In this document: positions 15,487 to 31,117 of the stretch, one piece after another
Position numbering within the stretch: the first letter of the stretch is position 1
How the letters are laid out: each line of letters opens with the position of its first letter
From: a virus
Direction: 5' to 3' (one strand)
DNA length: 34,168 bases
Virus record (IMG/VR): IMGVR_UViG_3300025168_000307
Span: 1 to 34,168 of that record
Notes under the pieces: generated by a model
The model's input: the letters and a program-made list of their open reading frames with translations, nothing else
Told to the model about the DNA's origin: nothing
Databases searched by the model: none
Made by a program: the position numbers and the translations under genes

Positions 15487-16725
15487 TTATAAATTTTTCC
15501 AAGTAAATGCCCCGAAGAACATTTCATCCTCTGACATCTGTCCCCAAGGCACTTCTCTACTAGGATCAGGGTTCATTTTATTTTCAGTTGAGTTATCAAA
15601 AGCTCCCTCTACAAATAGTCTAGTTCCTTTAGGTATATACTTAGGCTCTTTCCATGTGTATGAAAGCTGCCACGCATATTCATACTTAGGAATGTCAATT
15701 AATTCTTCCCAAGTCCCATCAGGATAGTAAGCTGTAGCTTTCATACTCTTGCCACGGAAGTGCATGTGAGGTAAGAACGTATGAAGATTTACATCTTGTT
15801 GAAGTTGTATTTCTGCTGTCTGTACAAAGTTAGGATCAAAAGGAGGTATCGGTGTCCAAGTATCAGGGAATATACAAGCACACCCCCCTGCCATTCTTTC
15901 TTCAGGCACTACACCTTCATCATGGAAATAAAGACCTATCCTTGCTTGGTCTGTTCTAGCTGTACCATCAGGCGTGTAATGTAATTGTAAGTTAACAACT
16001 GAACCTGCACGTAGTAGACCGCCAGTGTTTTCATCATAAAAATCAGGAGTACCTCCGGGGACATAGGCACTAACACTAGCGTAGTTTAAATCTTCTTGAC
16101 TCTCACCTGCTGCTCCAAGAAGGTTTGTTCTCTCGCCTTGTATAGAAACTGTGTTTAACATATGATGCATTACAGTTGGCTCACTTGGGAGAAACTCTGA
16201 GCCACGTAACCACTTATCTTCTGTTAAACCTAAATCTACTTTTGTGTATCTGTAAGGGATAGCATTAGGTCCAAGAGTTCCAACTGCAGGAATTTCTTGA
16301 GGCGGTACTTCAATAATCATATCAGGCTCACCATGTGCCCATGCTGAAGGAGAGTAAACAGTTTTTGTTAAAGGATCACTGTCCCCCTCTACTGGTGTAC
16401 CTGCATCAATCCATGCTATAAGTGTTTCTATTTCTGTATGACTTAGAGTTCTATGATTTATAATATCATCACGATATATAGGATTAATTTGGCCCGGAGG
16501 CATACGTTTAGATTCAATCGCTTCTTTTATAGCAGGTGCAAAGCCCTGTACTATTTGGTAGTTACTCATTGCCCACGGTGCTATGCCATTTTCTCGATGG
16601 CACATTTGACATTGTTCTATAAGAATAGGTGCTACACTAGTGGCATAATCTATATTAACATCCTCATGTGCTGCAGCTGCTGTTGCAAATAATGCGCTGC
16701 TAATCGTCACCGCTAACTTTTTCAT
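15487..16725 (-). CDS. Secreted cytochrome c-fused type II copper monooxygenase (copy A)
   Basis: 412 aa. Residues 1-19 are a Sec signal peptide (MKKLAVTISSALFATAAAA). Next is a cytochrome c-like domain with C39-Q-M-C42-H43 for haem attachment and M75 (RMPP) as probable axial ligand. The rest fits the two-domain PHM/DBH copper fold. CuA ligands are H187-H188 (TVMHHML) and H249 (LQLHYTPDG); CuB ligands are H320-M-H322 (LPHMHFRGKSM) and M402 (SEDEMFFGAF). All six copper ligands are present, so it should be active: hydroxylation with O2 and electrons delivered by its own haem instead of ascorbate is my inference. Such fusions occur in bacterial genomes; substrate unknown. Its start overlaps the upstream copy B by 26 bases, with GGAG as ribosome site inside it. 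A phage location is unusual. Confidence 0.9.
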   Translation of the reverse strand: MKKLAVTISSALFATAAAAHEDVNIDYATSVAPILIEQCQMCHRENGIAPWAMSNYQIVQGFAPAIKEAIESKRMPPGQINPIYRDDIINHRTLSHTEIETLIAWIDAGTPVEGDSDPLTKTVYSPSAWAHGEPDMIIEVPPQEIPAVGTLGPNAIPYRYTKVDLGLTEDKWLRGSEFLPSEPTVMHHMLNTVSIQGERTNLLGAAGESQEDLNYASVSAYVPGGTPDFYDENTGGLLRAGSVVNLQLHYTPDGTARTDQARIGLYFHDEGVVPEERMAGGCACIFPDTWTPIPPFDPNFVQTAEIQLQQDVNLHTFLPHMHFRGKSMKATAYYPDGTWEELIDIPKYEYAWQLSYTWKEPKYIPKGTRLFVEGAFDNSTENKMNPDPSREVPWGQMSEDEMFFGAFTWKNL

Positions 16726-17983
16726 TTCTTTTCTCCACTAATTGATTATAACCTTCATTATCTAAATGAGTTACTGCTATCCAAGCGTGTGTCATTTCAT
16801 CACCTGTCCTGCTACCACCAACAACCCACATGTCAGAGTCGGGATTGTTTGGATTTTCTTTGGTGTTGTCATACCATTGCTTTAATACTAAGACTGCTCC
16901 TGTTGGAAGAAGCGGTGCAAAGTCTGGCTCATATATGTGGCTGTGATGCCACGTTGCACTCCAGTTAGATACCTGACTGACTTGTTCTGTACGTCCAGTT
17001 TCAGGATAGAATATTTCAAAGGAAGCTGCATTCATTCTAAGATGACCGTGAGGCTGCCAAGAATCTATCCGTACAGGATGATCAAAAGAATGAAAGCCTT
17101 GTGTCATTAAGTATCCATTAGGGGGAATAACTATATCGTCTTGGTCGCTTATTCTGTACAGCTTTAAGTCTTGTTTGTATTTAAGTTCTTCAGATTCCTC
17201 TGGAGAATATAACCACATGCCTATATCTACGATGTTATTCTCAATAACAGATTCTGGAGCCATTGCTCCAAGACCTCCGGGGAACATATGAATGTCCCAT
17301 GCTATCTCTGCATTTGCAGGTATAGTACGACACACGCCCTCCGGTACTACCTCACCCCACTTACCCATAGCATACTCTGTGAGCATACCAAATCTTTCAC
17401 CATTTAAAATAACACTACTATTAGCATGGTGTACTACACTCTTAGCCTCGCCTCTTGGCTTAACTTGAATAGCTTTAATGCATCTGTCCTCTGCTAAACC
17501 ACTTGGCACATTATGTTTATGCCACAAATCATTTCCACTAGCAGGTATATCTATAGGCGTAGAGGGGATGACCACTGTAGGCTCTCCTAAATCCGCATAG
17601 AAGTTCCACTGACTAGGATCTGGTAGTACCAAAGGTGCTAGAGCTACATCCCTATTGCCGTACTCTGAGCCAGTATTAACCCACTCTACTATTGTATCTA
17701 TTTCTTCTTGTTCTAATCTCCAATCGCCATGCAGTTCTTGTATACCTATTTCTTTATCATAAGCATAGGGAGGCATCTCACGATTGGCTACTTTAATCTG
17801 TATCAAAGGACTCCACGGACGCACCTGCTCATATGTTTCAAACTGCATCGGGCCTATGCCACCCTGACGATGACACACAACACAGTTATTATTTATAATA
17901 TCTGCTACGTCATCTACATAAGTAACATCAGCTTGAGATACTGGTGCTATTGATATACAAATAGCTAATAAAGTCTTTTTCAT
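16700..17983 (-). CDS. Secreted cytochrome c-fused type II copper monooxygenase (copy B)
   Basis: 427 aa, translated first. Signal peptide at 1-18 (MKKTLLAICISIAPVSQA). Haem site C34-V-V-C37-H38 with M70 (EMPP). CuA ligands H185-H186 (VVHHANSS) and H232 (WDIHMFPGG); CuB ligands H312-G-H314 (WQPHGHLRM) and M397 (TGDEMTHAW). Like copy A, it keeps all six copper ligands and the haem motif. Copies A and B share domain order and landmarks but differ in most residues, so they are old paralogues that may work as a pair. B has an extra W-H-H-S-H run (345-349) and a charged C-terminal tail. AGGAT precedes the ATG. It sits 59 bases downstream of the 1,798-aa virion protein gene, within the late unit. 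Confidence 0.9.
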   Translation of the reverse strand: MKKTLLAICISIAPVSQADVTYVDDVADIINNNCVVCHRQGGIGPMQFETYEQVRPWSPLIQIKVANREMPPYAYDKEIGIQELHGDWRLEQEEIDTIVEWVNTGSEYGNRDVALAPLVLPDPSQWNFYADLGEPTVVIPSTPIDIPASGNDLWHKHNVPSGLAEDRCIKAIQVKPRGEAKSVVHHANSSVILNGERFGMLTEYAMGKWGEVVPEGVCRTIPANAEIAWDIHMFPGGLGAMAPESVIENNIVDIGMWLYSPEESEELKYKQDLKLYRISDQDDIVIPPNGYLMTQGFHSFDHPVRIDSWQPHGHLRMNAASFEIFYPETGRTEQVSQVSNWSATWHHSHIYEPDFAPLLPTGAVLVLKQWYDNTKENPNNPDSDMWVVGGSRTGDEMTHAWIAVTHLDNEGYNQLVEKRNEKVSGDD

Positions 17984-18042: not shown

Positions 18043-21000
18043 TTATAGCCCTGTTCTACCATACTTAGTATCCATTAAACTTCTAGTTCTAACTAACTTA
18101 GTTTCTTTAGGATTGTAAAGAGGATCAACACCATACATTAAAGGCTTTCCTGCTTTTAATTTTTCTTGAGTAATATCATAATCTTTAATCATTATTCTTT
18201 GAGCATCCAGATCATCTTTTGCAATATTTTGCAGCCCAAATCCATAAGCATTATTAACCATGTCTGTTGCCTCAGTTCTTGGATCAGGTCTAAAAGGCAT
18301 TTGAATTTGTTCTTTTAATTGTAATAAAAATTTATTACCTGCGCCCTTACCATGTTTATAAGATAAGTAAGCATGATTCATAACATTCCAAACTTCGTCA
18401 TTAAAAGGTTTTCTAAAATCTCCAAACCCTGCCTCATCTGTTGGGACTTTAAATTGTTTTGGAATCTCTCCTCTTTCAATAGCTGCATTTAAAAAAGTAA
18501 CTACTTCTTTTTCATGGTTACGCAGGTCTTCTTTAGTAACACCCATTCTGGCTGAACCTGCATACATAATTTTATCAAGTACTTTTTTTACTTTACCGCC
18601 TATACCAAACTCTTTACGAGGTGTATCATCTTTAGTTGTTTTATTAATAATTTTTAATACACTGTCATCAAAAAAAGAATATTCTTCATTACCTCCTAAA
18701 CTTAATCCTTCTAAAGAAGTCCCTCTTAAATCTCTTTTTGCAGCTTTAATTCCGTAGTCTTTAAAAATATTTTCTGGTTTTAAATTTTTATCTTCTAATT
18801 TTCTTTTTAAAATATAAAATATTCTTTTATTATTTTTATCTTCATTAGATAATGTAATATTAAAATCTCTAGCTATAGATTCTATTTTAGTTTGTACAGT
18901 GCTTAGTTGATCTATAAATCTTGTACCTGTTTTAATTATTTCATTATCATTTATACGCGCTTCTAATTCATACAAAGTAGGAGCAGAAGAACCCCTAGAA
19001 GTTCTTTCTTCTAAAAGAGCTTTTTCTGATAAGCCTACAGAACGATTAGGTGTTGCACTAAGATATGCTTCAGCTGCTTTTTTATCTGTTGTCACAGCTA
19101 CACCCCTACCTAATTGAAGTGAAGTAGAATCAATAGCTTTATCAGCTTTTAAAGTAGAAACATTATGTGGTGAACCATGATACAAACCTTTTATAATATT
19201 AGTTCCTGCTTTACTAAGTAATTTAGATATACCTCCTACACTTTTAAAGACGCGATCTTCTTCATCTATAAAAGCTTCTCCTGCTTGTATGTCATAAGCT
19301 AAACCTGTCATCTTATCTATACGTTCATCAGGTTCTATAGGTACTTGCATTACATTGTAGACTTCACCGCCTTTTCTAAAGTTTCTTTTAGGCGTAGCTT
19401 TTTGATCAGGTATAGTTTCATCTATAATATTTTTATCTAACTCTCTTAGAAAATCTCTATATTGATCGGGGAAATCTTCAGTGCTTTCAAAGGAACCAAA
19501 GACTGCATTAAAGGCTCCATATAAAGGAACTTTTTGTCCTACAACAGAGAAAATATCACCAGTTGTTATGACCTTATAAGTATCTCCCCACACTGGTCCT
19601 AGTCCTGTCATGTAAGCTGAAGGATTCTGATAAATCTCAGCTGCTGTGCGTCCACGTACAAACATATCAGCAGGTAAACCATTACCTCCCCATCTTAAAA
19701 ATGCATTACCTATTACTTCTTCAGGATCTCCCTCTAAAGATTCTCCTTGTGTTCTTACAGCATTAGTAAAGGCTGCTACTCCTGTCATAATTGCAGCAGC
19801 AGGAAGGTGCTGAGTAAGTATAGTTTCAGGATTTCTAGTTCCTTCTCTAATAACATTCTTCATTATAGTATTTGTAAATGCAGCAGGGTATCCAAGCAGT
19901 TGTCCCAATATAGCTGTCTTAGGATTAGACATATACATAGGTTTAATACCTGATTGTGCGCTAGGGTTTAAGATAACTTCATTAGTATAAACACCTGCCC
20001 CTTCTTTTAACTTTGTATAAAAGTTATCTCCTGTCTTAGCTCCTTGCTGTAGCCACTCTACCCCTTCGTTGTAGTTTATTCCAAGATCAGCTAGTTCATC
20101 TATTTGCCGTTGGACTCTTCTAGATGTTTTACCTGCTTGTATTAGTGGCATGTGTGATGCAATGCTTTCTAAATTTTCTGCTATTAATCTTTTACCAGTG
20201 ATATACGAAGCTGTTTGAACTCCTCGCGTCCATTGATCTAGTAATGTAAGCCTAAAAAATTTATTACTAACACCTCTCATAACAGGACTAGCTAAAGCAT
20301 CGCCTCCTAGTCTGTCAGCATAGTCAGCAAATGCCTGATCAAGAGCAATGCCCATGTAGTTAAGCTCTTCCATTGCTTCTTTTCTAGTCATGTTAAAAGA
20401 TTTTTCTAAACCATTTAACGAGTCATCGTACATTTTTTTAGAGCCACTAAATACAGCATCGCGCATACCTGCAAAAGCTGTCTTTGGTCCTGCCTTTGAA
20501 ATGTTTATAAATATTTCTGTAAGACTTGATAGAGTACTAAGTGGTAACAAAGCCATTCTATTTGCTAACATATAAGTATCAGCAGCCAGTTGTGTTTTAG
20601 CACCAAACCTATCTAAATCTTCACCAGTAATACTTTGATATACAGAAAGCATATCGTTTCTTGCACTTTGAATACTAGCTGAATCAGCCCCATTTTCACG
20701 CATTTCTTTTTCTATTGCAGGAAACCATGTGCTTTTAAACTCTTCTATATTTCTTACATTGAATACATCATCTTTAGCAAAGCTTTTAGCAGCTGACCTG
20801 TAATAACTTATCATTACATTATTTAAATCATTATCTAAATATTTATTAAAAGCAGTTTCATCTTTTAAAACTAATGCTCTTTTAGCAAAGAAACTATTCA
20901 TGCCTGTGCCTGAGTCATTACCAAATTGATATTTAATATCTAGTAATTCGTCGTATAACTCTTTAGCACCTTCTCTTGCATTGCCTGAGAAACTAACATT

Positions 21001-23439
21001 TTTTTCTAAAAGATTAATAAAGTTATCTTCATCTGCTTCTATTTCTGAACGCTTCCAAAGTCTAGGTAAGTAGTTGTCTACTAAATTATTTACAAAACCT
21101 CTACCTTGTAACTCTGTACCTAATTCATTTAATTGAGTCCTGCTAAAAGTTACTATGTCTAATAAACTTTTTCTTACTTCTTTATCTAAGTGACTAGTAG
21201 CTTCGCCTAGTTCTTTTGTACTACCAGTTCTAATAGCATTAGATAGTAAAGTATCTATATTATCTCTTAACTCTCCTTTAGCTAACTTTAATACAGGCTC
21301 ATAGATAGCTTTAAAAGGTTGTCCTAGTCTGCCAAACTCTCTATCAAAAACAGTACCATAATCATTTGTGTTTCTTACAATGCCCTCTCCTCTGTTCCAC
21401 GAATTAGAAAGAGAAGATGTAACGCGCTTTTGTAATGCTCCTATAACATTAGGAGCTTGTCTTACATAAGGATCAAGAACACCTGCTACTTTACCTGTAA
21501 GAAACTTAGCATTAAATTTAGAAGCTTGGTTTAAAGCCCTACTTAAAATAGTTTTTTCTCTAGCACTATTACTTATACCTTGAGTTGCATTTGATTCTGC
21601 TATAGCGTCTGCTAAAACATCTGAAGTTCTTTGGCCTCCACCTACATTATTAGATAATCCTCTAGCAAGAACACTAATATCTTCATCAGTTAAATCTAAT
21701 CTTTGAGATACTTTAACTTTTTGTCCAGATTCTAAAACTCCTGTTGCAGTTTTTTCTCCGTCTTTTAAATAAGTGTTCCTTACTTCTCTTATAGCAATAT
21801 CAATTTCAGATTCAGTTAATCCATACTCTTTAAATTTTGCTAAGACATCGGGGTTAACATCATTGACTTCCATTATTCTAGATTTTGTAGCTATGTCTAA
21901 CCCTCTAGATTTTTGTTGTGGAGTTAGTCTTTTAAAAATAGTATCTTTTATACCTAAAATAATACTGCCTACTCTAGTATCATCGTATTTATTATTTAAA
22001 CTTTTACCTAATTTATTTAATAAATTTGTATCTACTTCAGGATTTAGATTTCTATCAAAATATTCTTGGCCTCTTCTAGTAGTAGATGTAGTAATACCGT
22101 CAAAGAAATTACTAACTGTATCTTTTACTTTTTGATGTGCGTTTGTAAGTATCTCTGGAAGAACATTAGTTTCTCTTGCAATCTTTAATTGTTCTAATGC
22201 TCTTTCATTAGCTCTGTTTTCAAAAAGAGCTTTCTTCATTACTTGAGGTTTAGGATTAACAACATGATCTAGTTCATGTAGTAAATTAAACATAACCCAT
22301 TCATCTTCTGTTTGAATGTCATCAGCTTTTAATGGCGACACACCTTGTACTCTACTTGTTGTCCACGGTTTGTTTTTAAAACTTTCTCTTATAGCCTTAT
22401 CATCAAGTACTACAGATTGTATCTCACCTTTGCGAGTTTTAGTTGTTGCATACACAGGCGTTCCATTTGCTCTTGTTTTACCTGTAGGTTCAAAAATAAC
22501 TTCAGTTTGTTTTGTAACAGTAGTAGGAGTACCATCAATATTTTGTAATCTGTTATAATTAATTACAAGAGGCTGTGAAGTATCTATATTACTAAAGTCT
22601 AATTTTTCTATAGGAGATGCTTCATCAACTAGTGGGGTAGGCTTAGTAGTAGAAGGCGGTGTCTCTGCAACACTAGGCGTTCTTCTAGAGAACAATTTAG
22701 TAGCACCATATCCTAAAGCACCACCAAATGCAGCACCTGTGCCTACTGCTAAACCAAATTGTCCTTTACTAAAAGCATCCTGTACGCCAGTAGCTATGTT
22801 TATATCTTGTCGATTTGCATTCTCTACGCCTGTCCATGCTGCTCCTTCAAAAGCTGTAGCTGCTCCTACTTTAGAAGCTGAGATATTATTTAAAGTTCTT
22901 TTAACACTTTGCTTACCTGCTTCGCTAGTGAGGGCTTTATTCAACGCACCTGCAGATGCTTTTGTTGCAGTACTTCCAACTCCGGGAGCCACTAAAGCTA
23001 GTGCTAAGTTAATCGGGTCAGCAAACAAATCTACTCCTCTATCAAAAAGAGCCTTGCCTACTTCTCCAAAACTTCCGGGCTTAGAGTTTTCAAACTCATT
23101 TCTTAGATAAGCATAAGTTTGTTTTATATCTTCGGGGGCATCTTTTAAAACTCTAGCTCTGTCTGCTACTGTAAGCAAACGTCCTTCCTCGTCCCTAAGA
23201 GTTTCAAATATATCATTAGATATTAAACCACCAGTTATAGCCTCTGCTGCCCCCTCTTGCTCTGATAAGTAATTAAGTAACTTTTCAGACTCATCTTGAA
23301 ACTTTGGGTCACGCCTAAGATCGCCATGAGTTCTAGACACATACGATTGACGTAATCCAAATGTTTTTACTTCGGGAGTACTTATGTCTGAAGCTTTTAA
23401 ATTATCCCACGGACTAGAAGTTTTTCTAACTTTCCCCAT
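18043..23439 (-). CDS. Giant polyvalent virion protein (zinc-protease and ART-like motifs)
   Basis: 1,798 aa. Probably an ejected internal protein, like the large core proteins of T7-type phages. Features in order: N-terminal helical region with Ala/Gly-rich hydrophobic segments at about 142-160 and 225-250; a proline/threonine linker near 260; a zinc-metalloprotease motif H388-E-L-D-H392 with a following acidic helix (FENRANERA) that can give the third ligand; a very long helical middle (about 480-1320); a 'RKGGEVYNVMQVP...EPDERIDKMTGLAYD' segment seen in other marine-phage structural proteins; a fragment resembling ADP-ribosyltransferase cores of polyvalent proteins, L-Y1420-H1421-G-S-P-H-N ... 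LGRGVAVTTD ... AAEAYL; and a C-terminal domain repeating the FGIGGKVKK-type linker. Starts at TAATG with the lysozyme gene. Activities are inferred. Confidence 0.82.
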   Translation of the reverse strand: MGKVRKTSSPWDNLKASDISTPEVKTFGLRQSYVSRTHGDLRRDPKFQDESEKLLNYLSEQEGAAEAITGGLISNDIFETLRDEEGRLLTVADRARVLKDAPEDIKQTYAYLRNEFENSKPGSFGEVGKALFDRGVDLFADPINLALALVAPGVGSTATKASAGALNKALTSEAGKQSVKRTLNNISASKVGAATAFEGAAWTGVENANRQDINIATGVQDAFSKGQFGLAVGTGAAFGGALGYGATKLFSRRTPSVAETPPSTTKPTPLVDEASPIEKLDFSNIDTSQPLVINYNRLQNIDGTPTTVTKQTEVIFEPTGKTRANGTPVYATTKTRKGEIQSVVLDDKAIRESFKNKPWTTSRVQGVSPLKADDIQTEDEWVMFNLLHELDHVVNPKPQVMKKALFENRANERALEQLKIARETNVLPEILTNAHQKVKDTVSNFFDGITTSTTRRGQEYFDRNLNPEVDTNLLNKLGKSLNNKYDDTRVGSIILGIKDTIFKRLTPQQKSRGLDIATKSRIMEVNDVNPDVLAKFKEYGLTESEIDIAIREVRNTYLKDGEKTATGVLESGQKVKVSQRLDLTDEDISVLARGLSNNVGGGQRTSDVLADAIAESNATQGISNSAREKTILSRALNQASKFNAKFLTGKVAGVLDPYVRQAPNVIGALQKRVTSSLSNSWNRGEGIVRNTNDYGTVFDREFGRLGQPFKAIYEPVLKLAKGELRDNIDTLLSNAIRTGSTKELGEATSHLDKEVRKSLLDIVTFSRTQLNELGTELQGRGFVNNLVDNYLPRLWKRSEIEADEDNFINLLEKNVSFSGNAREGAKELYDELLDIKYQFGNDSGTGMNSFFAKRALVLKDETAFNKYLDNDLNNVMISYYRSAAKSFAKDDVFNVRNIEEFKSTWFPAIEKEMRENGADSASIQSARNDMLSVYQSITGEDLDRFGAKTQLAADTYMLANRMALLPLSTLSSLTEIFINISKAGPKTAFAGMRDAVFSGSKKMYDDSLNGLEKSFNMTRKEAMEELNYMGIALDQAFADYADRLGGDALASPVMRGVSNKFFRLTLLDQWTRGVQTASYITGKRLIAENLESIASHMPLIQAGKTSRRVQRQIDELADLGINYNEGVEWLQQGAKTGDNFYTKLKEGAGVYTNEVILNPSAQSGIKPMYMSNPKTAILGQLLGYPAAFTNTIMKNVIREGTRNPETILTQHLPAAAIMTGVAAFTNAVRTQGESLEGDPEEVIGNAFLRWGGNGLPADMFVRGRTAAEIYQNPSAYMTGLGPVWGDTYKVITTGDIFSVVGQKVPLYGAFNAVFGSFESTEDFPDQYRDFLRELDKNIIDETIPDQKATPKRNFRKGGEVYNVMQVPIEPDERIDKMTGLAYDIQAGEAFIDEEDRVFKSVGGISKLLSKAGTNIIKGLYHGSPHNVSTLKADKAIDSTSLQLGRGVAVTTDKKAAEAYLSATPNRSVGLSEKALLEERTSRGSSAPTLYELEARINDNEIIKTGTRFIDQLSTVQTKIESIARDFNITLSNEDKNNKRIFYILKRKLEDKNLKPENIFKDYGIKAAKRDLRGTSLEGLSLGGNEEYSFFDDSVLKIINKTTKDDTPRKEFGIGGKVKKVLDKIMYAGSARMGVTKEDLRNHEKEVVTFLNAAIERGEIPKQFKVPTDEAGFGDFRKPFNDEVWNVMNHAYLSYKHGKGAGNKFLLQLKEQIQMPFRPDPRTEATDMVNNAYGFGLQNIAKDDLDAQRIMIKDYDITQEKLKAGKPLMYGVDPLYNPKETKLVRTRSLMDTKYGRTGL

Positions 23440-23939
23440 TAATCAGCACCATCTATAATAGATTTTCCTGTAAATATATCATGCTCATCTTGTCTGCGAT
23501 TAACTAAACCTTGTAGTTTTTTTCCACCTGCTGTGTAATACTTTAGCATCATAGTAGCTATTTCATCTTTAGAGCGTGTGCCTTCAGCAGTGACTTGCTT
23601 TAAAGCTCCTCGGCCTAAATTAAATATAAAAGAACTTAAAGCAGCTACTTCATTATCTGTAAAATTATAATCATTATCTTTACCATAAGATCTAATGTAT
23701 TCAGAATCTCTATTTATTCTAGCTAATAATCTATTCTGAGCTTCCATTAATGTAATTTCTTCATTAGCACTAGTAGCCTCTGTACCAAAGCCATTAGTAT
23801 TTTGTCTTACATCAAAACTAGCTTTAGGTAAAAAGTTTTCAAATCTTTTAATTAATAAAGATGTAGGAGTATCAGAAGGTAAACTTATTTCTTTTAATCG
23901 TTCTTCAGAAATATTTCCACCACTAAAAACATTAGCCAT
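23439..23939 (-). CDS. GH24-type lysozyme (virion or lysis)
   Basis: 166 aa. Cuts the glycan strands of peptidoglycan. The family core is visible: E34 (KRFENFLPKASFD), D43 and T48 in D-V-R-Q-N-T-N-G-F-G, equivalent to T4 lysozyme E11/D20/T26 but one residue shorter between Asp and Thr. Then ALSSFIFNLGRGAL and the C-terminal NRRQDEHDIFTG match the conserved 'F-N-x-G-x-G' and 'R-R-x-x-E...F-x-G' of the family. About 25 extra N-terminal residues have no signal peptide. Its position between two virion proteins suggests it travels in the particle to open the wall during DNA entry, rather than, or as well as, acting as the endolysin. No other lysozyme is seen in the window. Confidence 0.85.
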   Translation of the reverse strand: MANVFSGGNISEERLKEISLPSDTPTSLLIKRFENFLPKASFDVRQNTNGFGTEATSANEEITLMEAQNRLLARINRDSEYIRSYGKDNDYNFTDNEVAALSSFIFNLGRGALKQVTAEGTRSKDEIATMMLKYYTAGGKKLQGLVNRRQDEHDIFTGKSIIDGAD

Positions 23940-23995: not shown

Positions 23996-26191
23996 TTACT
24001 TTGGGAGTACTATGTTTTCTCCCATTGAGTCTACCATAGCTTTAGCATATCTACTGGCTTCTGGACCTGATAAATCTTGACTTCTTCCTTCTGCTGTATA
24101 TGCAACTATAGCATCTCGGTATTTTTTACTTCTTGCTTCACCAGACTTTACAGCATCTATAACAGGAGCTACTACATTTATTGGTTCAGGACGAGTAGCC
24201 TGTCCTTTGAAGTCTTCTGGAAGAATAGGGCGTGGGTCTTCAGACGGTGTTGGTATTATACCTTCTTGTTCTTCTAGCCTATCAAAATGTTCTAGTATAT
24301 GGAAAACTCTAACTTCTCCAGTTTCAGATATAATTTCACTTGTATTATGCGTTAATGCTAATTGATCTATTATTTCAGGTTTGTAAGCAAGATTAACAGT
24401 GCTATCAGAAGCCATAAAAGAATTTTTTAATTTTTGTCTTGCTTCTTTTTTATTAGTAGCATTTATATCTGATCCTGATAAAGGTTTAATTTCATTTATA
24501 GCATTATAAACCATTGTATTATAAGCTGTCTCTGGTATTTCTAAAGCAGCCCCCGGTCTTTCTTCTTGTATACGAGCATCAGCAAGTAGCATTAAAGAAT
24601 TATTAAATTTATCTACACTTAAAAATTTATTATCTTCTAAATAATTTTCAAATGCATCGTCCATTCCTGAAACAACACTTTCGCCTAATGCACCCGATTG
24701 TAATTTATAGCTAAGATCAATATCTATATTTAACTCTTTACTTAAATTTTCTGAAGATACAGCTGCTTCTTGATATAAAGGTTTAATCATTGTATCTAAA
24801 ACTTCATCTCTATTATTATCTATTAAATCTTCTACTGTATCTATATTATTACCCATAGCTACAGCAAATACTTCTTTTGTTAAACCACTAGTTTTACCAC
24901 CAAACATAGTTACATCTGTTACTAAATTTGAAAAATAATTATTTACTTCTCCTGCTGCTTTCTGTACTGCTGTATCAGGTATTCTTTCTCTTTGTTGAGT
25001 TAAAGTTAAATCTTCAGTAAATACAACTTCACCTTTAGATATACTTACTACATCGCCAAAAAAATTCCTACCTGTTATATCAACTCGCAGGGCATTTCTT
25101 TGATAAGGTCCAACTTTTACTTCTTTAGGATTCTCTTGTGTAAACTCAATACTTTGATTAAAAGATTGTATTTGTGAATCAGATAGATTAATATCATTAG
25201 GGAAAGATCTTCCAGTTTGATATGCCTTATAATATAAATAATCTTTTGCTGCTTCAGGACTTAAAATTTTATTACCTTCTGAATCTTTTTTGTATTCTCC
25301 TGTTTTTGGATCTATATCATAATTAGCAGTAGTGCTTTCTATTGTAGCTCCATCTGGTGTTTCAGTGAGTGTTTGCAGTAGTATAACATTTCTATTCTCA
25401 CCAAAAGCACTAATTGTCCTTTCAATTTCTTTTACAGATTTTATTTTAGCTGTTTCTTTTTCTAGTTGATCTTTAACATCAGATGCTAATCTTTGAGATT
25501 TTTTTAGAGAATAACCTTGATCCATTGCACTTTTAGCAGCTTTAACAGCTTTAGCATTTTCACCAAACCTACTATTTAATACAGCATCTACTATTTGTTT
25601 ATCTGTATCTTCTGGAGTCTGTTCATTAATATTACGCAAAACAGAATTGACTAAAAAGTTACCAACATTAGTAGCCTTCTTACCTCTAGTTTGAGTAGCT
25701 ACAAAAGCATCGTAGTCATTTAGTTCAGGCATATTCAATGCTGCTTTGTAAGCTGTTTCAAATTGAGGTTGATACGCTTTAGCTGCTTCTCTTGCTTTTA
25801 CTAAAGCTAATTTTTCTATAGAGTCTGCTGTATATAATTTATCATCGACATTTAAAGTAATACCCTGTGTTGTATCAGGTAAAAATTTAGATGTTAAATA
25901 TTCTTCCATGCCTCCTGCATAAGCTTGTCCTGCAGCATAGTCATCTAGTATAGCTTGTCTGTCGCCTAGAGCAGATTTATAAAGAACTCTTTGACCTATC
26001 AAATCTTCATTTTGATTAACGAAAGTATCAGCCCGATTCTTCAAAGCAGAATTAACTAGCTGTACTCCTTTAGAAGCTAAAGCAAGAGCAGCTTGATTTC
26101 GCACATTCCTGCGTAATCTTTTATCTGTTCTATCTACATTGGCTCTTTGTCTATTTAAAAGAGAACTACCTAGTTCATCTATTTCGCTCAT
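23996..26191 (-). CDS. Internal virion (ejection) protein (731 aa)
   Basis: 731 aa, almost wholly helical and hydrophilic, with no catalytic signature. The N-terminus is a charged helix (DELGSSLLNRQRANVDRTDKRLRRNV) and long regions look like coiled coil. The position (K-rich membrane protein, 195-aa protein, this, lysozyme, giant protein) parallels the internal core block of T7-like phages (gp14, gp15, gp16). I call it the gp15-like member on context and length (T7 gp15 is 747 aa), not on sequence similarity. It starts one base after the upstream stop. Confidence 0.7.
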   Translation of the reverse strand: MSEIDELGSSLLNRQRANVDRTDKRLRRNVRNQAALALASKGVQLVNSALKNRADTFVNQNEDLIGQRVLYKSALGDRQAILDDYAAGQAYAGGMEEYLTSKFLPDTTQGITLNVDDKLYTADSIEKLALVKAREAAKAYQPQFETAYKAALNMPELNDYDAFVATQTRGKKATNVGNFLVNSVLRNINEQTPEDTDKQIVDAVLNSRFGENAKAVKAAKSAMDQGYSLKKSQRLASDVKDQLEKETAKIKSVKEIERTISAFGENRNVILLQTLTETPDGATIESTTANYDIDPKTGEYKKDSEGNKILSPEAAKDYLYYKAYQTGRSFPNDINLSDSQIQSFNQSIEFTQENPKEVKVGPYQRNALRVDITGRNFFGDVVSISKGEVVFTEDLTLTQQRERIPDTAVQKAAGEVNNYFSNLVTDVTMFGGKTSGLTKEVFAVAMGNNIDTVEDLIDNNRDEVLDTMIKPLYQEAAVSSENLSKELNIDIDLSYKLQSGALGESVVSGMDDAFENYLEDNKFLSVDKFNNSLMLLADARIQEERPGAALEIPETAYNTMVYNAINEIKPLSGSDINATNKKEARQKLKNSFMASDSTVNLAYKPEIIDQLALTHNTSEIISETGEVRVFHILEHFDRLEEQEGIIPTPSEDPRPILPEDFKGQATRPEPINVVAPVIDAVKSGEARSKKYRDAIVAYTAEGRSQDLSGPEASRYAKAMVDSMGENIVLPK

Positions 26192-26192
26192 G

Positions 26193-26780
26193 CTATACTC
26201 CTTGCTGCGCTAAAAGACTTTCATTAGCTGTATCTAATTCTTTTGGTTTTCCTAGTAAGCTTTCTTCTACTATAGGTACTTCTTCTATAAGCTGTGATAT
26301 TTCTGGGGGCAAAGAAACATTAGGCTTCATTGACTTCTGTGTTCCTTCTAGCCTCTTTTTCATATCTGTTGTATTTAGTTTGCTAGTCTGCTGTGCTTCA
26401 TCTTCATCATCATCGCCATTAATAACATACTCAATGCCTTGCCTCTCAGCTAAAGCTATTAAGATGTAAGCCAATGGCTCTGCTAGTAACATCATTAGAT
26501 CAGGATTCCACTTACCCTCAGTGAACCCTTTAAATAACATTACTTGAGTTAACTCCATTATTGGTACGCTGCTATTTATTGCAGTTAAAATATCTGCATA
26601 CCTATCTTCATCTGTAATAAGACTAAACAAATATTCTAAAGCTTCACGCTGCACCGTAAATTCTGGCTTGCCTTCAAATGGATAAGGATTATCGGGGTCA
26701 TTAGATAATGCCTCCCCCGGAGTAGACCTTTGCATTTTGCCAGTGTATTCTGCAAAATCAGGAGTTATTTCTCTTAACAT
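26193..26780 (-). CDS. Putative virion structural protein (195 aa)
   Basis: 195 aa. The order 'PGEALSNDPDNPYPFEGKPEFT - EALEYLFSLI - SSVPIMELTQVMLFKGFTEGKWNPDLMMLL - EPLAYILIALAERQGIEYVI' matches a structural protein I recall from marine phages (including T4-like cyanophages), annotated as virion protein of unknown position. The C-terminal third is acidic and probably disordered (GDDDEDEAQQ). It lies within the block of internal proteins. Confidence 0.7.
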   Translation of the reverse strand: MLREITPDFAEYTGKMQRSTPGEALSNDPDNPYPFEGKPEFTVQREALEYLFSLITDEDRYADILTAINSSVPIMELTQVMLFKGFTEGKWNPDLMMLLAEPLAYILIALAERQGIEYVINGDDDEDEAQQTSKLNTTDMKKRLEGTQKSMKPNVSLPPEISQLIEEVPIVEESLLGKPKELDTANESLLAQQGV

Positions 26781-26791
26781 AATTATTACCT

Positions 26792-28027
26792 TTATGAGAA
26801 TCTAGATGATAAATCTCTAGACCAAGTGGATACAGGGTTCATTAAAATTGTATCATATATTCTAGAGGTAGAACCATATTGGCCCATGTTTGCATAAGCA
26901 CTAAAGTTCCTATTGCCTGTAGGTATTGCAGATACTTCCATATCACTTACTCCTGCGCCTACATACATTGCAGGGCTGTAGCCACTGCTTCCATATATAT
27001 CTTCTGGAACTTGAGGATCAATTATTTGTGAAGCTGTTCCTATATCTTGTACTGCTTTTAAACTAGAAGATATAGGTGCGTCAGTAAAATTATACCTATC
27101 AGTTACTTCTTTCTTAATACCTTCAATTATGTTTGATCCAAAAGAATCCGGTGGTTTAATATTACCCTTAACTGGTTTAGAGTTTATCCATTCTTGATAC
27201 CTATTAGCTACTTGTGCTTCTCTAGCAGTCATAGTAGATATATCTTTAGGAGCTAACAAACTTTCTGCTGTGGCTTGTCCAGATGTATCAAGCTCAACAG
27301 TATTCATAAAATCTTGAGGTGAGCCACCACTTTCTATTGCTGCTTTCCTAAAATTTGCTGTGACATCAGCATTAGTATTTACTGTAGAAACTGCATCTAA
27401 ACTACCTGCATCAAAATTTATTTTATCTCCGACTTTAAGATTATCTAAATCTAAATCTACATTCATACTTTGAATTCTTTCTTTAGAAACACCAGTGCTA
27501 TTTATAACTTCTTTTAAATCCATACCTTGTTTTATATCAACAGTACTTCTAAATGGGTTAACTATATTTCCTGCATTTTTAACTATATCTTGTTGTACAG
27601 TTTCCCAAGCTCCTCCTTTACCAAAGAAATTTGTTGAGGCACTTTTAATATTAACTCCGGGGATTTTATTCAAAGCAGTTTTAGAAAACTCTCCTATAAA
27701 CTTAGTAACCCCTTGAGTTACAGTATTAAAGGCATTCTTTCCAACAGTTACAAATTTATGTGCTGCACTAACTACATGCCCTGCTCCTCTGACTATAGCA
27801 CCGCCAATGCTCCCTAAAGTATTAGTAACCATACTAGAGGCTATACCGCCTATGCCATTCATTAAAGCATTGCCTATTCCCGGAAGTATAAAGGCCATAG
27901 CAATCTGACCTACTATTCCGATCTTATTCATAAACTTGCCAATTTTACCGACAGTCTTTTTTATTCCTCTGCCAATTTTTTTAAAGACTTTGCCAACGCC
28001 CTTAAATACTTTTTTAAAGAATCCCAT
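26792..28027 (-). CDS. Membrane-active virion protein with K-rich amphipathic N-terminus
   Basis: 411 aa. Residues 1-36 are a repeating cationic amphipathic stretch (MGFFKKVFKGVGKVFKKIG...KKTVGKIGKF), followed by a Gly/Ala-rich hydrophobic region to about 85 (IAMAFILPGIGNALMNGIGG). The remainder is mixed, with a Ser/Gly/Tyr-rich tail. This N-terminus is a common marker in marine-phage structural proteins and suits membrane insertion or pore formation during DNA ejection, akin in role to T7 gp14. Role is inferred from chemistry and neighbours. Confidence 0.72.
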   Translation of the reverse strand: MGFFKKVFKGVGKVFKKIGRGIKKTVGKIGKFMNKIGIVGQIAMAFILPGIGNALMNGIGGIASSMVTNTLGSIGGAIVRGAGHVVSAAHKFVTVGKNAFNTVTQGVTKFIGEFSKTALNKIPGVNIKSASTNFFGKGGAWETVQQDIVKNAGNIVNPFRSTVDIKQGMDLKEVINSTGVSKERIQSMNVDLDLDNLKVGDKINFDAGSLDAVSTVNTNADVTANFRKAAIESGGSPQDFMNTVELDTSGQATAESLLAPKDISTMTAREAQVANRYQEWINSKPVKGNIKPPDSFGSNIIEGIKKEVTDRYNFTDAPISSSLKAVQDIGTASQIIDPQVPEDIYGSSGYSPAMYVGAGVSDMEVSAIPTGNRNFSAYANMGQYGSTSRIYDTILMNPVSTWSRDLSSRFS

Positions 28028-28036
28028 TTAAAACTC

Positions 28037-31000
28037 CTATCCGAATATTTCTTCAATTAAATCTTTAACGCCATTAGCAACACCAGTATTATTTATTGCT
28101 GTATTACTTTCATTATTCATAGCAGTAATATACATATTTGTTTTTTGTGCAGCTGTATCTAGTTCTTGTTTTCTTAAAAATGTAGCTTCATCTCTTAAAG
28201 TATTCCAAAGAAAATCTAACTCTTGTGTAGATATACCATAAGCATTCTGTACATTCTGTGCATTAGCAGCATTAATAGCAGCTGTGTTAGCTGTATTAGA
28301 TTGTCTACGCCAATTAGTATTAGCCTGTTCTATTGCTTGTGCATTAGAAGCATTCCAAATATCTCTTTGATTATCTATATTATTATTAAATTGTGCTACT
28401 TGTAATTCTACTTGAGCGTTAAACTTAGAAACATCTACAGCATTGTTAGCGTCTAAAGCAGCTAGTCTGTTACTTTCAGAAGCATTAAACTGCGACATTG
28501 CATTTGATTGACTAGCATTGAACTGCTCCATAGCATTTTCTTGTGTAGTAAGAAATGTATTAATTTGATTTTCAGATGTAGAACTAAATTGTCTAGCTGC
28601 ATTTTCAGCAGCTTGATTAGATAGTAATTGTTGTTGCGACATTTGAGTATCTAATATAACAGCTTGTTGAGCATTGTTTAGATTAGCCACATCTATTTGT
28701 AAAAAGTTTCTAGCATTTTCTACTGCTAGTTTTGTCCTTGAGTCAGCTGTACTTAAATCTAAGGAAGCCATAGCTGTAGCATTTTGCATAGCTGATTGTT
28801 GTCTAGCATTCATATTCGTTAGTGTAGTATTTTGCATAAACTGACTATTAGCTAACTCTACTTGTTGAGCAGCTGAGAACTTGGTCAAATCAATTTTTGC
28901 TTGTGTTGTAGCATTAGTAACTGCTCTTTGTTGATCTACACTTAATTGAGCAACATTCATTTGAGCAGCTATATTTGCACTAGTAATATTAGTCTGCATC
29001 TTAGCATTGAGATTTGTTAACTCTGTTTGCTGTGCATTAGACAGGGTTTCTGAAGCAGCTTGGTTTTGTGCAGTCAGATTAGCGAGTCTCATTTGTTGAT
29101 CGGAACTTAAATTAGCAAGCTCCATTTGTTGCTTAAACCCTGCATTCTTAGATAAGAAATCAGCAGCCACTTGCATTTCTGCAAGACGCTCTTGATTCTG
29201 AGCAGTCATATTTTGCTGTTCAGCTTGATTCTTTATTTCTAATTCAGCTAACTCTATCTGCTGTGCATTCCCTAGTTCTTGAGAATTTGTTTGCTGTTGA
29301 TTCTGTGCCGTTAACTCTGCAGATCTTTGACGGTTCTGTAAATTTTGTACTCTTACTTGTTGCTGTTGTTGAGCAGAAAGCAAAGCAGCTTCTTGGCCTT
29401 GTTGACTTTGGAGAACTTTTAAGTTCTGTGCAAACTGTGCTGTCTGTGAAGCAGCTGTTTGTTGATTAGATAAATTACTTAAACGTCTTGTAGAATTTAA
29501 ACGTGCTTCTTCTAAGTTAGCTGTTTGTTGATTTGTTAAGTTCTGTGCTGCATTATTTTGCAATGCCTGTGCATTACTTTGTGCTATAGGTAATGCTGTT
29601 TGTATAATTGAATTAAACAAAGCATCCCTGCCTACTGTAGAAACTCCTAAACCTCTGGAGGCTAATCCTTGTTCAACTGCAGCTACAGCAGGTTTAGCCC
29701 ACATAGGTATAGTGCCTGACTCCATACCGCCTAATAGAGTTTCCATCTGAGCAGAGACTAATGCTTCAGGAGGTAAGGCAGCTATGGCTGCTTGTACTTC
29801 TATAGGCTGAGTATCTACCATAGCAGTTACAGATGCAGGGTCTTCAACAACAGCTGCAGCAACATCTGAGGGTATATTACCTGTAACAGCAATTACATTT
29901 GCAGCAGCACCTTTAGCTGCTTCTCCAGTTATTGCTGCTCTTTGTCGGGCTGTGTAACCTACTTGTTCTATAATCTTAGCTTCTTCGCCAGTAGCTGTTT
30001 TACCAGTAATAGCTGCCCTGCTTGTAGCTTCTGCTTGAGGACTGTCAGATAAAGTAGCAGTTGCACCAGTAACATCAGGTACAAAAGCTTTAGAGTCTAT
30101 TGTGTAATCGGCTACTGATGCTTGACTTGCTCCTGCTTCTGTAGCACTAATTTGAGCAGCTTGTGCAGGAGATGTTAACGCTCTTAATTCTGCCATTACT
30201 GCGGAACTAGGCGCACCTGCAAATGCAGGAATAGTTTTTGATAGTTCTCCTGTTAAAGCAGCCTCATAGTCAGAAGCTTTTATTGTGCCATCGGCTATGC
30301 CTTTTTCAACTGTACCACTAGCTGCGGTAATCGCTGTTGAAGTAGCATCATCTATACCAGTAATACCAGAAAAAGCTTTAAGGTTTTGTATAGCAGAATC
30401 AGGAGTTATTGTACCTGTTGTATCAATAGCTGTTGCTTGTTGTTTTGCAATAGCAGTATCTATATTAACAGGCTTATAATTTTTTAAATAACTTCCGGGG
30501 ACATAAGCCGTCTTACCTGCTGCATCTTTAAAAGATACATCTTCAATAGTTTTAGAAACAGCTTGACCTCTTGCAATATTTGGTAAACCACCTACAAAGG
30601 GATCAGGAATAGAAGTAGCTCCTGCATCTGATACTTGGTTTATTCTATTAAATTCTGCTTGTACTTGTGAGGGATCAACACCAAATTGTGCAGCAGCATC
30701 TTCTACAGTTAATGTTTTATTCTCAATAGCATTAAATACAGCATTAGTTTCTGCAGGTGTATAAGCACCATCAGCAGGAATAGCTGCTATAGCTGCAGGT
30801 ATAGTAGTAGTTGGAGCAGGTGCAGGATCAGGATCAGGATCAGGCGTAGGTGCAGGTGCATTTTGAGCATTAATAGTTGCTAGATTTTGATTAACATAAT
30901 CCGTAGATACGCCATACTCTTCTGCAAGATCAGCAGCTGTGCGTGTTTTTGCATTAAGATCGGCTACAGCTTGATCTACATCTGCTTGAGTAAATGCTTT

Positions 31001-31117
31001 ATTAGGTTTTTCTTCTTGAGGTGCTTGCACATCTGCAACTATACTACCTAACTGATAAGTAACCCTACCACCCTTACGATAGTCTGCTCTTTTTTTGTAT
31101 GCTCTTTTCCTAGCCAT
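28037..31117 (-). CDS. Q/N/A-rich rod-like virion protein (1,026 aa)
   Basis: 1,026 aa. The basic N-terminus ARKRAYKKRADYRKGGRV resembles starts of other marine-phage structural proteins. Two copies of a short helical module follow: 'AFTQADVDQAVADL...YGVSTDYVNQNLATINAQ' at about 41-86 and 'AYTPAETNAVFNAI...FGVDPSQVQAEFNRINQ' at about 117-161. They are joined by an Asp-Pro/Ala-Pro linker. An Ala/Thr-rich region runs to about 510. Then comes a long Gln/Asn/Ala-rich helical rod (about 511-952) with repeating 'L-x-N-x-x-x-Q-Q-x' units and no cysteines. Probably a long fibrous component of the tail or core. No enzymatic motif. Starts with AGAGAGAAAT upstream. Confidence 0.72.
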   Translation of the reverse strand: MARKRAYKKRADYRKGGRVTYQLGSIVADVQAPQEEKPNKAFTQADVDQAVADLNAKTRTAADLAEEYGVSTDYVNQNLATINAQNAPAPTPDPDPDPAPAPTTTIPAAIAAIPADGAYTPAETNAVFNAIENKTLTVEDAAAQFGVDPSQVQAEFNRINQVSDAGATSIPDPFVGGLPNIARGQAVSKTIEDVSFKDAAGKTAYVPGSYLKNYKPVNIDTAIAKQQATAIDTTGTITPDSAIQNLKAFSGITGIDDATSTAITAASGTVEKGIADGTIKASDYEAALTGELSKTIPAFAGAPSSAVMAELRALTSPAQAAQISATEAGASQASVADYTIDSKAFVPDVTGATATLSDSPQAEATSRAAITGKTATGEEAKIIEQVGYTARQRAAITGEAAKGAAANVIAVTGNIPSDVAAAVVEDPASVTAMVDTQPIEVQAAIAALPPEALVSAQMETLLGGMESGTIPMWAKPAVAAVEQGLASRGLGVSTVGRDALFNSIIQTALPIAQSNAQALQNNAAQNLTNQQTANLEEARLNSTRRLSNLSNQQTAASQTAQFAQNLKVLQSQQGQEAALLSAQQQQQVRVQNLQNRQRSAELTAQNQQQTNSQELGNAQQIELAELEIKNQAEQQNMTAQNQERLAEMQVAADFLSKNAGFKQQMELANLSSDQQMRLANLTAQNQAASETLSNAQQTELTNLNAKMQTNITSANIAAQMNVAQLSVDQQRAVTNATTQAKIDLTKFSAAQQVELANSQFMQNTTLTNMNARQQSAMQNATAMASLDLSTADSRTKLAVENARNFLQIDVANLNNAQQAVILDTQMSQQQLLSNQAAENAARQFSSTSENQINTFLTTQENAMEQFNASQSNAMSQFNASESNRLAALDANNAVDVSKFNAQVELQVAQFNNNIDNQRDIWNASNAQAIEQANTNWRRQSNTANTAAINAANAQNVQNAYGISTQELDFLWNTLRDEATFLRKQELDTAAQKTNMYITAMNNESNTAINNTGVANGVKDLIEEIFG
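28260..29585 (-). repeat. Degenerate Q/N-rich coding repeat
   Basis: Segment of the 1,026-aa protein made of many imperfect units of about 11-15 residues such as NLSSDQQMRLANLTAQNQ, TLSNAQQTELTNLNAKMQ and QLSVDQQRAVTNATTQAK. Hydrophobic positions recur with Q-Q pairs, giving a predicted continuous helix or coiled coil. Boundaries are approximate. Confidence 0.6.
30825..30842 (-). repeat. Three GGATCA hexamers (Asp-Pro repeat)
   Basis: On the plus strand GGATCA is repeated three times without a break. On the coding strand it gives the D-P-D-P-D-P linker between the two helical modules of the 1,026-aa protein. Slippage-prone and perhaps variable in length. Confidence 0.7.

What the first reader, a model, noticed from the sequence alone, without database searches (positions are those of the whole stretch)
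18043..23439. One virion protein with both a zinc-protease and an ADP-ribosyltransferase-like motif
The 1,798-aa protein holds HELDH (388-392) with a downstream acidic helix, and LYHGSPHNV...GRGVAVTTD (from about 1418). Polyvalent proteins with such effector domains are thought to be injected with the DNA to disarm hosts. Here the usual aromatic in the G-x-G-x-[YF]-x-T strand of the ART core is replaced by Ala (GVAVTTD), so the transferase may be inactive or altered.
Basis: partly seen in the sequence, partly recalled or inferred. Interest (0 to 1): 0.7.

Follow-up and report, generated by a model that had tools for sequence, protein, structure and literature searches.

The report
Phage ejection protein with swappable enzyme cargo
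A marine virus of bacteria makes one giant particle protein that most likely enters the cell with the viral DNA; its end is a swappable slot that here holds a protein-modifying enzyme of an unusual type, and a probable protein-cutting domain sits near its start.

Summary
In detail: a 1,798-aa ORF (window 18043-23439, MINUS strand) with HELDH at 388-392 and LYHGSPHNV/GRGVAVTTD at 1419-1452. The ART is real. Relatives about 30% identical to it match Pfam ART-PolyVal, one above its cut-off. The AlphaFold model's best PDB match is the cyanophage A4 pre-ejectosome protein (9k3a_B), followed by tankyrase/PARP ART domains. The zincin is supported by conserved HExxH plus a downstream Glu motif in relatives, but its low-confidence model found no fold match. 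The Ala is not a lesion of this gene: all 11 aligned sequences carry Ala or Ser there, while the strand-1 His, the strand-5 Glu and a PARP-like second Tyr are invariant and the domain is under purifying selection. "Altered" fits better than "inactive".

The larger finding is modularity. The ~815-aa scaffold is homologous to LUZ24-type virion structural proteins. A phage 92-99% identical on one side and 97% on the other carries an unrelated module instead of the ART. Relatives carry zero to three cargo modules after a conserved ~45-aa linker, which also occurs on other scaffolds and on stand-alone cargo genes. A new variant of the known polyvalent (zincin + ART) proteins. Packaging, injection and catalysis are inferred.

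The parts
18043..23439 (-). 1,798-aa putative ejection (internal virion) protein carrying zincin and ART
   Evidence: PHROG virion structural/endolysin families over the core
22660..23439 (-). N-terminal domain, aa 1-260, shared by most relatives
   Evidence: HMM hits across relatives; 99% identical in L006
22099..22509 (-). Zincin-like domain, aa 311-447; absent from close relatives such as L004, L025, L029
   Evidence: HExxH + E(N/D)xxN conserved; model helices fit; no PDB fold match
22264..22278 (-). HELDH motif, aa 388-392; candidate third zinc ligand E407 (nt 22219-22221)
19255..21699 (-). Core scaffold, aa 581-1395
   Evidence: phrog_7348 5.5e-136, phrog_6958 1.6e-20; LUZ24-like structural proteins, tblastn 4e-11 to 8e-6
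19249..19377 (-). Conserved linker, aa 1355-1397 (KGGEV...EPDERIDKMTG...QAGEAFIDEEDR)
18625..19200 (-). ART domain, aa 1414-1605 (cargo slot)
19177..19179 (-). H1421, strand-1 ART histidine
   Evidence: Invariant in 11 sequences
19084..19110 (-). GRGVAVTTD, aa 1444-1452; A1448 in the place of the usual aromatic
   Evidence: Ala or Ser in all 11 sequences; Tyr/Phe in the A-4L, Pf-WMP3 and RPP1 ARTs
18682..18684 (-). E1586, strand-5 Glu of EYSFFD (PARP1-like end motif)
   Evidence: Invariant in 11 sequences
18046..18618 (-). Conserved C-terminal domain, aa 1608-1798, closing the slot
   Evidence: 97% identical in L006 and L005 although the cargo differs
23439..23939 (-). Phage lysozyme gene, its stop overlapping the start of the ejection gene
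   Evidence: Pfam Phage_lysozyme 4e-15
23996..31117 (-). Upstream late genes (731, 195, 411 and 1,026 aa) that keep company with the scaffold in relatives
   Evidence: Homologues in 32, 57, 51 and 50 fetched loci, overlapping loci counted

Best explanation
The ORF is an internal (ejection) protein of a marine LUZ24/P22-like podovirus. Its N-terminal domain and core form part of the ejection apparatus. The C-terminus, between a conserved ~45-aa linker and a conserved terminal domain, is a cargo slot whose content is exchanged by recombination. Here the slot holds a PARP/ART-PolyVal-type ADP-ribosyltransferase with an H-(A/S)-E active site, and a second optional position holds a zincin-like metallopeptidase. 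The whole chain is packaged and enters the cell with the DNA; the zincin may cut the chain or a host protein, and the ART modifies a host or defence target with ADP-ribose early in infection. SHOWN by computation: domain boundaries, ART fold, conservation of the catalytic His and Glu, replacement of the slot between near-identical phages. INFERRED: packaging, injection, catalysis, targets, and what the zincin cuts.
For: ART: alignment of 11 sequences with invariant H1421, G1444, G1446, T1450, Y1459, E1586; Pfam ART-PolyVal on relatives L037 (2.1e-7), L106 (31.7 bits, cut-off 31.2) and L107; model pLDDT 72.8, pTM 0.70; Foldseek: 9k3a_B E 3.8e-5 prob 1.00, then tankyrase/PARP; 40 viral hits E<1e-3, several named ART-PolyVal-like; dN/dS 0.39-0.46. 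Virion context: 9k3a_B is A-4L gp27 over its full 1,717 aa and gp27 has SLYHGT...GSGTYFS at aa 1425; core matches virion structural proteins. Zincin; the zincin+ART pair recurs in L106, core 36% identical. Exchange: L006 and L005 versus window.
Against: No Pfam model hits the window's own ART or zincin. The zincin model (pLDDT 63) has no significant PDB match. TM-scores to PARPs are modest (0.3-0.4) and the glycine-loop region is poorly modelled. No proteomic or biochemical data exist. The usual second-motif aromatic is absent.
Confidence: 0.66

Rival explanations
1. The ART-like domain is catalytically dead and serves as a structural or NAD/nucleotide-binding module of the ejectosome.
For: The aromatic of the second motif is Ala or Ser in the whole clade. 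A similar fold is part of a solved pre-ejectosome.
Against: His, Glu and the second Tyr are invariant at 28-32% identity. The domain is absent or replaced in near-identical phages, so it is not needed to build the particle. It also exists as a stand-alone 199-aa gene between portal and head genes in L107.
Confidence: 0.2
2. The ART acts in the producing cell late in infection (on host or virion proteins during assembly), and packaging is incidental.
For: It is a late-region gene; the stand-alone form in L107 lies among head genes.
Against: Fusion to an ejection-type scaffold, and a similar fold inside a packaged pre-ejectosome, point to delivery.
Confidence: 0.1
3. The HELDH region is not a peptidase but an unrelated helical domain with a chance HExxH.
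For: No Pfam hit and no fold match.
Against: HExxH plus downstream E(N/D)xxN are conserved in relatives that are only 25-37% identical (HELDH, HELNH, HERVH, HEIMH, HELMH), with a strand-helix-helix layout as described for polyvalent zincins.
Confidence: 0.15

Closest known systems
Polyvalent proteins (Iyer et al. 2017, PMC5512222)
   Same: Large phage protein of the virion-gene region combining a zincin-like metallopeptidase and an ART; proposed to be packaged and injected.
   Different: Cargo is attached through one conserved linker to a LUZ24-type ejection scaffold and exchanged between near-identical phages; the ART is H-(A/S)-E rather than the H-Y-D described there.
ART-PolyVal (Pfam PF18760) / Tox-ART-HYD2 clade
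   Same: Distant members of the clade match the model; same strand-1 His motif and ART strand order.
   Different: Second-motif Tyr/Phe is Ala or Ser; strand-5 residue is Glu in a PARP-like EYxxYD; the window's own domain is below detection by the model.
Anabaena phage A-4L gp27 (PDB 9k3a_B, cyanophage A4 pre-ejectosome)
   Same: Large protein of a solved pre-ejectosome that is the best fold match of the ART model and has a YHGT...GSGTYFS motif near its C-terminus.
   Different: No detectable sequence homology of scaffold or linker; its ART keeps the Tyr.
LUZ24-like (Bruynoghevirus) virion structural protein, e.g. NC_019813 orf18
   Same: Homologous core, 24% identity over aa 729-1198.
   Different: 1,056 aa, without zincin, ART, linker or cargo slot.
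T4 Alt
   Same: Packaged ART that enters with the DNA (as described in PMC5512222); the model of action borrowed here.
   Different: R-S-E clade, separate protein; a functional analogy only.

Membership tests
ADP-ribosyltransferase fold (PARP/ART-PolyVal side) | ART fold | tested here: met
   Foldseek to 9k3a_B prob 1.00, tankyrase-2 prob up to 0.97; 40 viral hits E<1e-3
ADP-ribosyltransferase fold (PARP/ART-PolyVal side) | Strand-1 histidine | tested here: met
   H1421 invariant in 11
ART-PolyVal / HYD clade | Aromatic (Tyr/Phe) in the second motif | tested here: not met
   Ala/Ser in 11 of 11; Tyr/Phe in A-4L, Pf-WMP3, RPP1
ART-PolyVal / HYD clade | Asp in strand 5 | tested here: not met
   Glu (E1586) in the EY(S/T)x(Y/F)D motif, judged by sequence alignment
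ART-PolyVal (PF18760) | Pfam gathering score | tested here: inconclusive
   Window domain: no hit; relative L106 31.7 bits vs 31.2; L037 2.1e-7
ART-PolyVal (PF18760) | ADP-ribosyl transfer | not testable with these tools
   Needs biochemistry
Zincin-like metallopeptidase of polyvalent proteins | HExxH | tested here: met
   Conserved in all relatives
Zincin-like metallopeptidase of polyvalent proteins | Third ligand Glu in the following helix | tested here: met
   E407, invariant; helix 136-157 of the model
Zincin-like metallopeptidase of polyvalent proteins | Zincin fold | tested here: inconclusive
   pLDDT 63, no PDB match with E below 0.6
Polyvalent proteins | Several unrelated enzymatic domains in one phage polypeptide beside virion genes | tested here: met
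Polyvalent proteins | Packaged and injected | not testable with these tools
   Indirect support only
LUZ24-type virion structural protein | Homologous core | tested here: met
   Profile E 8e-21; tblastn at about 24% identity

The most novel reading that the evidence does not exclude
The conserved ~45-aa linker is a cargo-docking or loading signal of the ejectosome: a general coupling by which marine podoviruses attach interchangeable enzymes to different ejection scaffolds, working in cis (fusions) and in trans (linker at the start of separate cargo genes, or at the end of cargo-less scaffolds).
Probability: 0.25. Interest if true: 0.75.

Novelty: new variant of a known kind. Interest (0 to 1): 0.5.

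Why it matters
If true, these phages carry an exchangeable enzyme payload on their DNA-ejection machine. It could reveal which host defences or pathways must be met in the first minutes of infection, and the linker could be a natural tag for sending proteins through an ejectosome. The H-(A/S)-E active site is a conserved natural variant for testing what the aromatic residue of ARTs does.

Tried and rejected
Pfam, NCBIfam and PHROG scans of the window's own ART and zincin: no meaningful hit. tblastn of both domains in 50,697 phage records: no match. PDB sequence searches with window proteins and profiles: nothing significant. Zincin fold search: no significant match. Idea that zincin and ART depend on each other: rejected, they segregate (zincin without ART in L002, L003, L006, L137; ART without zincin in L025, L037). 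Idea that the zincin cuts at the recurring GG joints: not supported, the joints persist in zincin-less proteins; no enrichment test was made. Idea of a recent inactivating mutation: rejected. Idea of an assembly chimera: unlikely, each slot content occurs in two records (window and L001; L006 and L005), though window and L001 may come from related samples. Genome-collection search for the linker: none confirmed in 84,980 species, so no host was found. The A4 pre-ejectosome paper is not held.

Full report
OBSERVATION. The ORF at 18043-23439 is on the minus strand and gives a 1,798-aa protein. HELDH is at 388-392, LYHGSPHNV at 1419-1427, GRGVAVTTD at 1444-1452; an HExxH appears in 0.55% and a YHG[ST]...GxG pair in 0.15% of shuffles. 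The window is an IMG/VR virus record of 34,168 bases with DnaB-like helicase, family-A DNA polymerase and ribonucleotide reductase genes on the plus strand and late genes (tail fibre, holin, lysozyme, this ORF) on the minus strand. The big ORF overlaps the stop of a lysozyme gene.

SCAFFOLD. Residues 571-1358 match phrog_7348 (5.5e-136) and 959-1198 match phrog_6958, virion structural protein. In annotated phages only the core is recognised, in LUZ24-like Pseudomonas phages and a Pseudoalteromonas phage at about 24% identity (profile E 8e-21 and 2e-32). The PHROG label 'endolysin' does not apply to this ORF: the lysozyme is the neighbouring gene.

ART. The only sequence relatives found are in uncultured viruses. 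Eleven aligned sequences (the others 28-70% identical to the window's) keep H1421, G1444, G1446, T1450, Y1459, E1586, D1591. A relative with 31% identity hits Pfam ART-PolyVal at 2.1e-7; L106 passes the curated cut-off, and a stand-alone 199-aa copy between portal and head genes in L107 scores 1.2e-5. The AlphaFold model (pLDDT 72.8, pTM 0.70) finds as best PDB match 9k3a_B, cyanophage A4 pre-ejectosome (E 3.8e-5, probability 1.00), followed by tankyrase-2 and PARP1 catalytic domains, and 40 viral predictions at E<1e-3, several called ART-PolyVal-like. The sequence of 9k3a_B is Anabaena phage A-4L gp27 over all 1,717 residues, and gp27 has SLYHGT...GSGTYFS at aa 1425. That the Foldseek match lies on this stretch is inferred; the tool does not print target positions.

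THE MISSING AROMATIC. In the A-4L, Pf-WMP3 and RPP1 ARTs the position is Tyr or Phe; in all 11 members of this clade it is Ala (3) or Ser (8). The last motif is EY(S/T)x(Y/F)D with Glu, which resembles the end motif of PARP1 around its catalytic E988 (from my own knowledge), unlike the His-Tyr-Asp set described for polyvalent ARTs. The spacing from GxG to the invariant Y1459 equals that from the GKGIY motif to the nicotinamide-stacking Tyr907 in PARP1 (own knowledge). dN/dS of the ART is 0.39-0.46 between window, L025 and L033. A conserved, altered active site is better supported than a dead one.

ZINCIN. Eight relatives (25-98% identical) and later L137 keep HExxH and a downstream E(N/D)xxN; the model has strands, then a helix with HExxH, then a helix with the Glu, as described for polyvalent zincins. 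Confidence is low (pLDDT 63 overall, about 80-90 for the central part) and no PDB match is significant. The family assignment thus rests on motifs and layout.

MODULARITY. Between window and L006 residues 1-1405 are 92-99% identical and 1608-1798 are 97% identical, but the piece between is an ART here and an unrelated ~510-aa module there; L001 repeats the window's version and L005 that of L006. The zincin is likewise present or absent (L004, L025, L029 lack it). Cargo after the linker is nothing, ART1, QSD, ART3, VGF, or combinations such as QSD+ART1+ART2 (ART2, ART3, QSD, VGF are my working names, and ART2/ART3 were judged ART-like only by eye). The zincin+ART pair recurs in L106, whose core is 36% identical.

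LINKER. KGGEV..VPQ.PEEPDERIDKMTGLPYD.QAGEAFIDEEDR is 63-81% identical to the window's in eight divergent proteins. Among non-redundant, uncut ORFs it lies inside 24 proteins with this core and 20 without it, at the C-terminus of 11 scaffolds and at the N-terminus of 3 separate cargo genes. Three of four other scaffolds checked match phrog_22602, virion structural protein; the fourth, L010, has no scaffold match. In L011 and L091 the cargo gene starts at the stop of the scaffold gene; in L007, L041 and L042 the next ORF overlaps the scaffold's end and carries an ART3 module. In IMG/VR 276 stretches encode it; in 84,980 prokaryote genomes none was confirmed. Its retention in split arrangements argues for a role beyond that of a passive hinge, such as docking; this is a hypothesis.

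MECHANISM. Packaging, injection and modification of a host target follow from the scaffold's homology, the pre-ejectosome match and the precedent of T4 Alt and polyvalent proteins, and are not shown for this phage. The zincin may release domains or act in the host; the paper leaves both open.

VERDICT.

Noticed in passing
window 19249-19377 (-); L011, L091, L084, L007: A ~45-aa linker conserved across different scaffolds, at the N-terminus of separate cargo genes and at the C-terminus of cargo-less scaffolds; found in 276 viral stretches and confirmed in no prokaryote genome.
   Followed up: partly
window 15487-16725 and 16700-17983 (-): Two adjacent genes with weak cytochrome c / haem-binding and copper type II monooxygenase (C-terminal domain) matches below Pfam cut-offs; homologues of the longer one lie beside the ejection gene in many related phages (56 fetched loci, overlapping loci counted).
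   Followed up: partly
L025 aa 1792-2240: Two ART-like modules in tandem in one protein, ART1 with Ala and a second (by eye) with Tyr at the aromatic position, after a third unrelated module.
   Followed up: partly
L107 5974-6573 (+): Stand-alone 199-aa ART gene of the same H-Ser-E clade between the portal gene and head genes.
   Followed up: partly
L043, L047, L049, L080 (minus-strand ORFs of about 412-429 aa): Metallopeptidase-like protein with HEIGHSVGLAHGP encoded near the ejection genes of related phages.
   Followed up: no
window 18043-23439 and 28037-31117; L009, L025: Recurrent (F/Y)xxGG-(K/E/I)-(V/I) joints between modules and near the N-terminus of the 1,026-aa protein; possible hinge or processing sites.
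   Followed up: no
window 18043-23439 (-), PHROG 7348 match: The PHROG label 'endolysin' is misleading for the core of this protein; the lysozyme is a separate overlapping gene here.
   Followed up: yes
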